Origin: an uncultured Flavobacteriaceae bacterium
Lineage (GTDB): Bacteria; Bacteroidota; Bacteroidia; Flavobacteriales; Flavobacteriaceae
NCBI GenBank assembly: GCA_938020445.1
Contig: CALIIC010000028.1
Location: 55,936-119,935 of the forward strand
DNA: 64,000 nt
Direction: 5' to 3'
Below, in pieces: positions 21,051 through 21,294 of this stretch (the stretch's first letter is position 1; each line of letters starts with the position of its first letter). Made by a program: the position numbers and the translations under genes. The notes beneath the pieces were generated by a model. It ran no database searches. It had not been told where the DNA came from and saw nothing but the letters and a program-made list of their open reading frames with translations.

Positions 21051-21136
21051 AGTGTTTGCACGTACCGATCAAGCTATGCGCTTTTCAGCACTAGTTCTTG
21101 ACCGGGATTGTGCTACACGAAAATTGTTTCAAGGGT
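21051..21136 (-). ncRNA. Candidate structured RNA element, copy 1 of tandem pair
   Basis: 86-bp direct repeat partner of 21209-21294. Minus-strand fold: GUGU-A-GCAC...CCGGUCAAG-AA-CUA-GUGCU-GAAA-AGCGC-A-UAG-CUUGAUCGG...GUGC-AA-ACAC. Confidence 0.6.
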
Positions 21137-21208
21137 CCCTGTCGCCGGTATAAATTTTGCTTTGGTCCCCAAGGGCGTTGTAAGTGAATTTTGATTTTTT
21201 TTCTACTA

Positions 21209-21294
21209 AGTGTTTGCACGTACCGATCAAGCTATGTTCTTTTCAGAACTAGTTCTTGATCGGGGTTGTGCTACACGAAAATTATTTCAAGGGT
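21209..21294 (-). ncRNA. Candidate structured RNA element, copy 2 of tandem pair
   Basis: Minus-strand fold: GUGU-A-GCAC...CCGAUCAAG-AA-CUA-GUUCU-GAAA-AGAAC-A-UAG-CUUGAUCGG...GUGC-AA-ACAC; differences from copy 1 in the stems preserve pairing. Confidence 0.6.

What the first reader, a model, noticed from the sequence alone, without database searches (positions are those of the whole stretch)
21051..21294. Tandem structured RNA with GAAA tetraloops and stem-preserving variation ahead of the dioxygenase gene
Two 86-bp direct repeats (158-bp offset) in the 375-bp gap between sbnB-like and the TauD-like gene fold, on the coding (minus) strand, into the same long multi-segment hairpin. Segments: GUGU/ACAC, GCAC/GUGC, CCGAUCAAG/CUUGAUCGG, CUA/UAG, GUUCU-GAAA-AGAAC. 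Stem differences between copies preserve pairing: one compensatory U-A to G-C type pair change, and A-U to G-U type changes at two pairs (CCGGUCAAG/CUUGAUCGG; GUGCU/AGCGC). As DNA on the plus strand those would be A-C mismatches, so selection appears to act on the minus-strand RNA. Possible roles: tandem riboswitch-like leader, NusG-paralog target, or processing/stability element setting dioxygenase levels.
Basis: seen in the sequence. Interest (0 to 1): 0.85.

Follow-up and report, generated by a model that had tools for sequence, protein, structure and literature searches.

The report
Tandem RNA hairpins before dioxygenase gene
Between two genes of a bacterium's antibiotic-like gene cluster sit two near-identical, well-folded RNA hairpins made by a local duplication; they probably protect or set off the message of the next gene, but no relative was found in any other genome, so their function is untested.

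Summary
Two 105-nt copies (88% identical, offset 158) lie in the 375-nt sbnB-tauD spacer. Each minus-strand RNA folds into the described rod-like hairpin (z about -5). The five core differences are one loop change, one compensatory U-A to G-C pair and two A-U to G-U changes. Among 422 spacers sampled from about 20% of the genome, no other holds a direct repeat of 40 nt or more.

The stronger claims hold only in part. Five differences between two paralogous copies are weak covariation (P from about 0.003 to 0.1, by mutation model), and the strand argument rests on two events. A covariance model finds only these two copies in the genome and nothing credible in about 800 draws of related genomes. 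There is no Rfam match. The orthologous sbnB-tauD spacers of Aquimarina acroporae and Flavobacterium cupreum lack it, and no U-run follows either hairpin.

Best reading: a lineage-specific intercistronic mRNA element, formed by tandem duplication of tauD's 5' flank (hairpin plus A-rich ribosome-entry stretch), inside a PKS/NRPS operon headed by a UpxY-type NusG paralog. It probably acts on decay, processing or insulation. The simplest rival is a duplicated spacer without function. A UpxY-binding or riboswitch role is not excluded, but nothing supports it.

The parts
21210..21277 (-). core hairpin of copy 1: GUGU/ACAC, GCAC/GUGC, CCGAUCAAG/CUUGAUCGG, CUA/UAG, GUUCU-GAAA-AGAAC
21052..21119 (-). 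core hairpin of copy 2: same stems, CCGGUCAAG and GUGCU-GAAA-AGCGC variants
21190..21294 (-). whole ungapped repeat copy 1 (105 nt)
21032..21136 (-). whole ungapped repeat copy 2 (105 nt)
21012..21051 (-). A-rich leader between hairpin 2 and the tauD start codon, mostly unpaired (mean pairing 0.09 in its first 20 nt, 0.25-0.41 nearer the start codon)
   Evidence: sequence; pairing profile
21154..21209 (-). counterpart of that leader after hairpin 1, diverged, with an 8-nt gap relative to copy 2; ACG where tauD has ATG in an ungapped reading of the junction (relic, inferred)
   Evidence: gapped alignment of the units places indels there; the ACG/ATG match is read by eye
20010..21011 (-). TauD/TfdA-family dioxygenase; a 59%-identical homolog in Tenacibaculum litoreum is named SyrP-like
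21387..22358 (-). SbnB-like (2,3-diaminopropionate synthesis), just below the equivalog cut-off
22382..23371 (-). SbnA (2,3-diaminopropionate synthesis)
27313..27834 (-). UpxY-family NusG paralog at the head of the operon
   Evidence: 132 bits, cut-off 100
27175..27312 (-). spacer after upxY with two stable hairpins, the second ending in UUUUU (terminator-like by eye; not listed by the terminator scan)

Best explanation
A lineage-specific intercistronic mRNA element. Each unit is a 68-nt rod-like hairpin capped by a GAAA loop, followed by an A-rich, largely unpaired ribosome-entry stretch. A tandem duplication of tauD's 5' flank produced two units; the upstream unit lost its start codon (ACG where tauD has ATG, read by eye) while its hairpin stayed intact. 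In the long operon transcript the two hairpins most likely act as barriers to 3'-5' exonucleases for the sbnA-sbnB side and/or as a structured 5' end for a processed tauD message, and keep tauD's ribosome-entry region clear of upstream sequence. Shown: the repeat, the structure, the pair-keeping differences, the position, the absence of a U-run and of other copies. Inferred: transcription, the duplication history, and the decay/insulation role.
For: Minus-strand fold z about -5 for both copies. All 25 pairs kept through 4 stem differences. Core less divergent than flanks. Homology runs on into tauD's start region, so the unit is 'hairpin + leader'. Hairpin 2 ends about 40 nt before ATG and the next 20 nt are open. 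Neither hairpin is followed by a U-run (sequence), and neither is among the terminator-like sites. Removing one 158-nt unit gives about 217 nt, close to the 207-nt ortholog spacer in A. acroporae. Protective structures at operon-segment boundaries are a documented mechanism: malE-malF, menBCE with consecutive hairpins, papBA (PMC5927463).
Against: No transcript, 3'-end or decay data. Five differences are too few for strong covariation. Orthologous tauD spacers do without it: F. cupreum spacer z -0.7, A. acroporae a different and weaker structure, z -2.9. Comparably stable spacer hairpins are not rare in this genome.
Confidence: 0.5

Rival explanations
1. A tandem duplication of a spacer with no function of its own; the hairpin persists by descent, and pair-keeping differences arose by chance or by DNA-level repair between the arms of a quasi-palindrome.
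For: Pair-keeping has P up to about 0.1 when the observed substitution types are kept. No conservation outside this genome. Stable spacer hairpins are common here.
Against: Four of four stem differences keep pairing, P 0.003-0.02 under a general model. The hairpin is better kept than its 3' flank. Arm-to-arm repair would give Watson-Crick pairs, not the two G-U pairs.
Confidence: 0.27
2. A recruitment site for the operon's own UpxY/NusG paralog, working like the RNA hairpin that LoaP binds, here placed mid-operon in two copies.
For: UpxY-family gene at the head of the same operon, and a related protein in the Saprospiraceae cluster. LoaP, another NusG paralog, binds a small RNA hairpin and is needed for difficidin and macrolactin expression (PMC12691694).
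Against: No copy in the upxY leader or elsewhere in the window or genome. LoaP's target is a small UNCG-type hairpin in the 5' leader. UpxY acts on the leader upstream of upxY (PMC7819879). The ortholog clusters lack the hairpin.
Confidence: 0.07
3. A tandem ligand-binding leader (riboswitch-like attenuator) for tauD.
For: Tandem arrangement just upstream of one gene; internal loops nearly unchanged between copies.
Against: No Rfam match even at E 10 apart from a chance snoRNA. No homologs. Neither a terminator nor an alternative sequestering fold is apparent; cross-copy pairing is weaker than own-arm pairing, -24.3 against -28.5.
Confidence: 0.06
4. A DNA-level element: REP/MITE remnant, recombination or integration site.
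For: Palindromic, tandem, in a spacer.
Against: Single locus: no other copies in the genome; no match in phages and only a 29-nt chance-level match in plasmids; no exact match in viral contigs. Two differences break pairing on the plus strand only.
Confidence: 0.05
5. An internal promoter with a 5'-terminal hairpin: TAATTTTC at 21284-21277 resembles the Flavobacterium -7 box TAnnTTTG (consensus from memory) and would start RNA near the foot of hairpin 1.
For: 7 of 8 matches to the -7 consensus in copy 1.
Against: Copy 2 has CAATTTTC. No full TTG-N17-23-TAnnTTTG in the spacer.
Confidence: 0.05

Closest known systems
Intercistronic protective hairpins of bacterial operons (malE-malF structure, menBCE, papBA)
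   Same: Stable hairpin(s) without a U-run between genes of one operon; consecutive hairpins are known at menBCE (PMC5927463)
   Different: Two tandem near-identical copies; no decay data; not homologous in sequence
REP/BIME elements
   Same: Palindromic, intergenic, can be paired
   Different: Scattered in many copies; here one locus only
LoaP-binding RNA hairpin of the dfn and mln leaders
   Same: RNA hairpin in an antibiotic-type operon with a NusG paralog
   Different: Small UNCG-type hairpin in the 5' leader (PMC12691694); here a GAAA-capped, interrupted rod of 25 pairs, mid-operon, with a UpxY rather than a LoaP gene
Tandem riboswitches
   Same: Two similar structured domains before one gene
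   Different: No known aptamer, no expression platform, no conservation

Membership tests
Intercistronic mRNA stability/processing hairpin | Stable hairpin between co-directional genes on the transcribed strand | tested here: met
Intercistronic mRNA stability/processing hairpin | Not an intrinsic terminator (no U-run) | tested here: met
   sequence; not among terminator-like sites
Intercistronic mRNA stability/processing hairpin | RNA ends or half-life change at the structure | not testable with these tools
   no transcript data
REP/BIME or MITE | Many dispersed copies in the genome | tested here: not met
Known Rfam riboswitch or ribozyme | Match to a curated covariance model | tested here: not met
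Conserved cis-regulatory RNA | Homologs with covariation upstream of orthologous genes | tested here: not met
   two paralogous copies only
LoaP-type NusG-paralog RNA target | UNCG-type hairpin in the operon's 5' leader | tested here: not met
   GAAA loop, mid-operon; no copy in the upxY leader; definition
LoaP-type NusG-paralog RNA target | Protein binding | not testable with these tools
   needs binding assay

The most novel reading that the evidence does not exclude
A new, lineage-restricted cis-acting RNA: two tandem GAAA-capped rods bound by a protein (possibly the operon's UpxY antiterminator) or a pathway metabolite, controlling the SyrP-like dioxygenase step of a diaminopropionate-containing lipopeptide pathway.
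Probability: 0.1. Interest if true: 0.55.

Novelty: new member of a known kind. Interest (0 to 1): 0.27.

Why it matters
If the stability/processing reading holds, it is one more way in which a Bacteroidota secondary-metabolite operon sets unequal gene output, and shows how such an element can arise by a single tandem duplication. If UpxY binds it, it would be the first RNA target known to me for a UpxY-family regulator (from memory, not searched exhaustively), and NusG paralogs of PKS/NRPS operons would have an internal re-loading site.

Tried and rejected
Rfam at E 10 (one chance snoRNA) and at gathering (none). Own genome by BLAST, by pattern with 3 mismatches and by covariance model: only the two copies. 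Relatives by BLAST: only short matches of 14-33 nt, many in the A-rich tail. Covariance model over 400 family and 398 order genomes (draws overlap): one weak hit, G094/L037, 29.5 bits, E 0.005 for one genome in a search of 400, with many broken pairs and no GAAA loop; judged chance. Orthologous clusters L039-L042: no match to the model. TauD ortholog search in family, genus and phylum draws found no other close ortholog; the nearest TauD known is 72% identical (P0002), so no sister cluster was available for covariation. TRF did not list the pair. Leader-peptide attenuation: only short unremarkable ORFs with GTG/TTG starts in the spacer. Cross-copy pairing as a switch: weaker than own-arm pairing. 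Considered a shared motif with the spacer at 17831-17971 (UAGCAC...GUGC): fold z only -1.75 and no match to the model; dropped.

Full report
What is there. The window lies on contig C28 of a Flavobacteriaceae-like genome (my inference: the order includes a 0.3-Mb reduced genome, and the named relatives of this cluster are Aquimarina and Flavobacterium). On the minus strand an operon-like row runs upxY (27313-27834), TolC-like, HlyD-like, ABC, sbnA, sbnB, tauD, a cyclic-peptide-export-type ABC transporter (TIGR01194, above its cut-off), a permease, an epimerase-like gene, a PKS, a fatty acyl-AMP ligase with a carrier domain, and a further large gene running off the window (roles of the proteins not scanned are read from their sequence). 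The 375-nt spacer between sbnB and tauD is the site of the finding.

The repeat and the fold. Two 105-nt copies, 88% identical, are spaced 158 nt. Each folds as minus-strand RNA into an interrupted rod of 25 pairs with a GAAA loop, -30 kcal/mol, z -4.9 and -5.7. The five core differences are one in a loop, one compensatory pair and two A-U to G-U changes; all pairs are kept in both copies, while on the plus strand copy 2 loses two.

How strong is it. As a repeat it is singular: among 422 spacers in 0.93 Mb of this genome (about 20%) it is the only one with an internal direct repeat of 40 nt or more. As a hairpin it is in the top few percent but not alone (rank 6 of 221). As covariation it is weak: random mutation keeps all pairs with P 0.003-0.02 given four stem hits under a general model, and 0.06-0.11 if the observed substitution types are kept from copy 1 to copy 2. 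The reverse direction gives 0.0002-0.0004, but the ancestral copy is unknown. The structure was also defined on these same sequences. The strand preference rests on two wobble pairs. Core divergence (5/67) is below flank divergence (6/22), P 0.02.

Where else. Nowhere found. Own genome: only the two copies by three methods. Covariance model over 400 family and 398 order genomes: nothing beyond one chance-level hit. Orthologous sbnA-sbnB-tauD clusters exist in Aquimarina acroporae and Flavobacterium cupreum; a Saprospiraceae MAG has sbnA- and sbnB-like genes with one further gene before tauD, and a Cytophagales MAG has a related tauD in another setting. None has the element. The F. cupreum spacer is unstructured (z -0.7) and that of A. 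acroporae has a different, weaker structure (z -2.9). The nearest TauD protein in 5.8 billion is 72% identical, so no close sister cluster is at hand.

Origin. The gapped alignment of the two units runs on beyond the hairpin through the A-rich stretch into tauD's start. Read without gaps at the junction (by eye), copy 1 has ACG where tauD has ATG. I infer a tandem duplication of tauD's 5' flank; removing one unit leaves about 217 nt, near the 207 nt of the A. acroporae spacer.

How it probably works. The hairpins are not intrinsic terminators: the minus strand continues UUAGUAGAAAAAAAAUC and UCCUUAAAAAC. Hairpin 2 stops about 40 nt before tauD's ATG and leaves an open A-rich stretch. That anatomy matches intercistronic protective or processing hairpins, which are known to set unequal decay within operons, sometimes as consecutive hairpins (PMC5927463). 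The steps from anatomy to decay or insulation are inference. A neutral duplicated spacer is the main rival.

NusG paralog. The 173-aa protein is UpxY family (132 bits, cut-off 100), and a related one sits upstream of sbnA in the Saprospiraceae cluster (29% identical). LoaP needs a small UNCG-type hairpin in the 5' leader (PMC12691694) and UpxY acts on the leader upstream of upxY (PMC7819879). The element here is mid-operon, GAAA-capped and absent from the upxY leader, so this link remains a guess. The spacer after upxY has a stable hairpin ending in UUUUU that looks like a terminator and is the more natural place to look for antitermination.

Verdict. A real, accurately described, single-locus tandem hairpin pair; probably an ordinary kind of intercistronic RNA element of local origin; the riboswitch and NusG-target readings are unsupported. 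Interest is modest.

Noticed in passing
window 27313-27834 with 27835-28340 and 27175-27312: A UpxY-family antiterminator gene heads a PKS/NRPS-type operon, with a 506-nt structured leader and a terminator-like hairpin (ending UUUUU) right after it; a UpxY-like gene also precedes sbnA in the Saprospiraceae MAG cluster (L041:2172-2681).
   Followed up: partly
L075:2299-2633, L102:18321-18888, L068:12879-13505 (same genome): A dispersed intergenic repeat of about 90-150 nt, 76-79% identical, with TGTCTGNACACTTGTC-like sub-repeats and no Rfam match at gathering score.
   Followed up: partly
window 14180-14357, 15300-15439, 17831-17971, 19925-20009, 25698-25791: Several other spacers of the operon also show a hairpin followed by an A-rich stretch before the start codon, with unrelated sequences; stability is ordinary for this genome.
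   Followed up: partly
L037:1501-1583: Weak covariance-model hit (29.5 bits) directly before a LysA-like start codon in genome G094; chance level for 400 genomes.
   Followed up: partly
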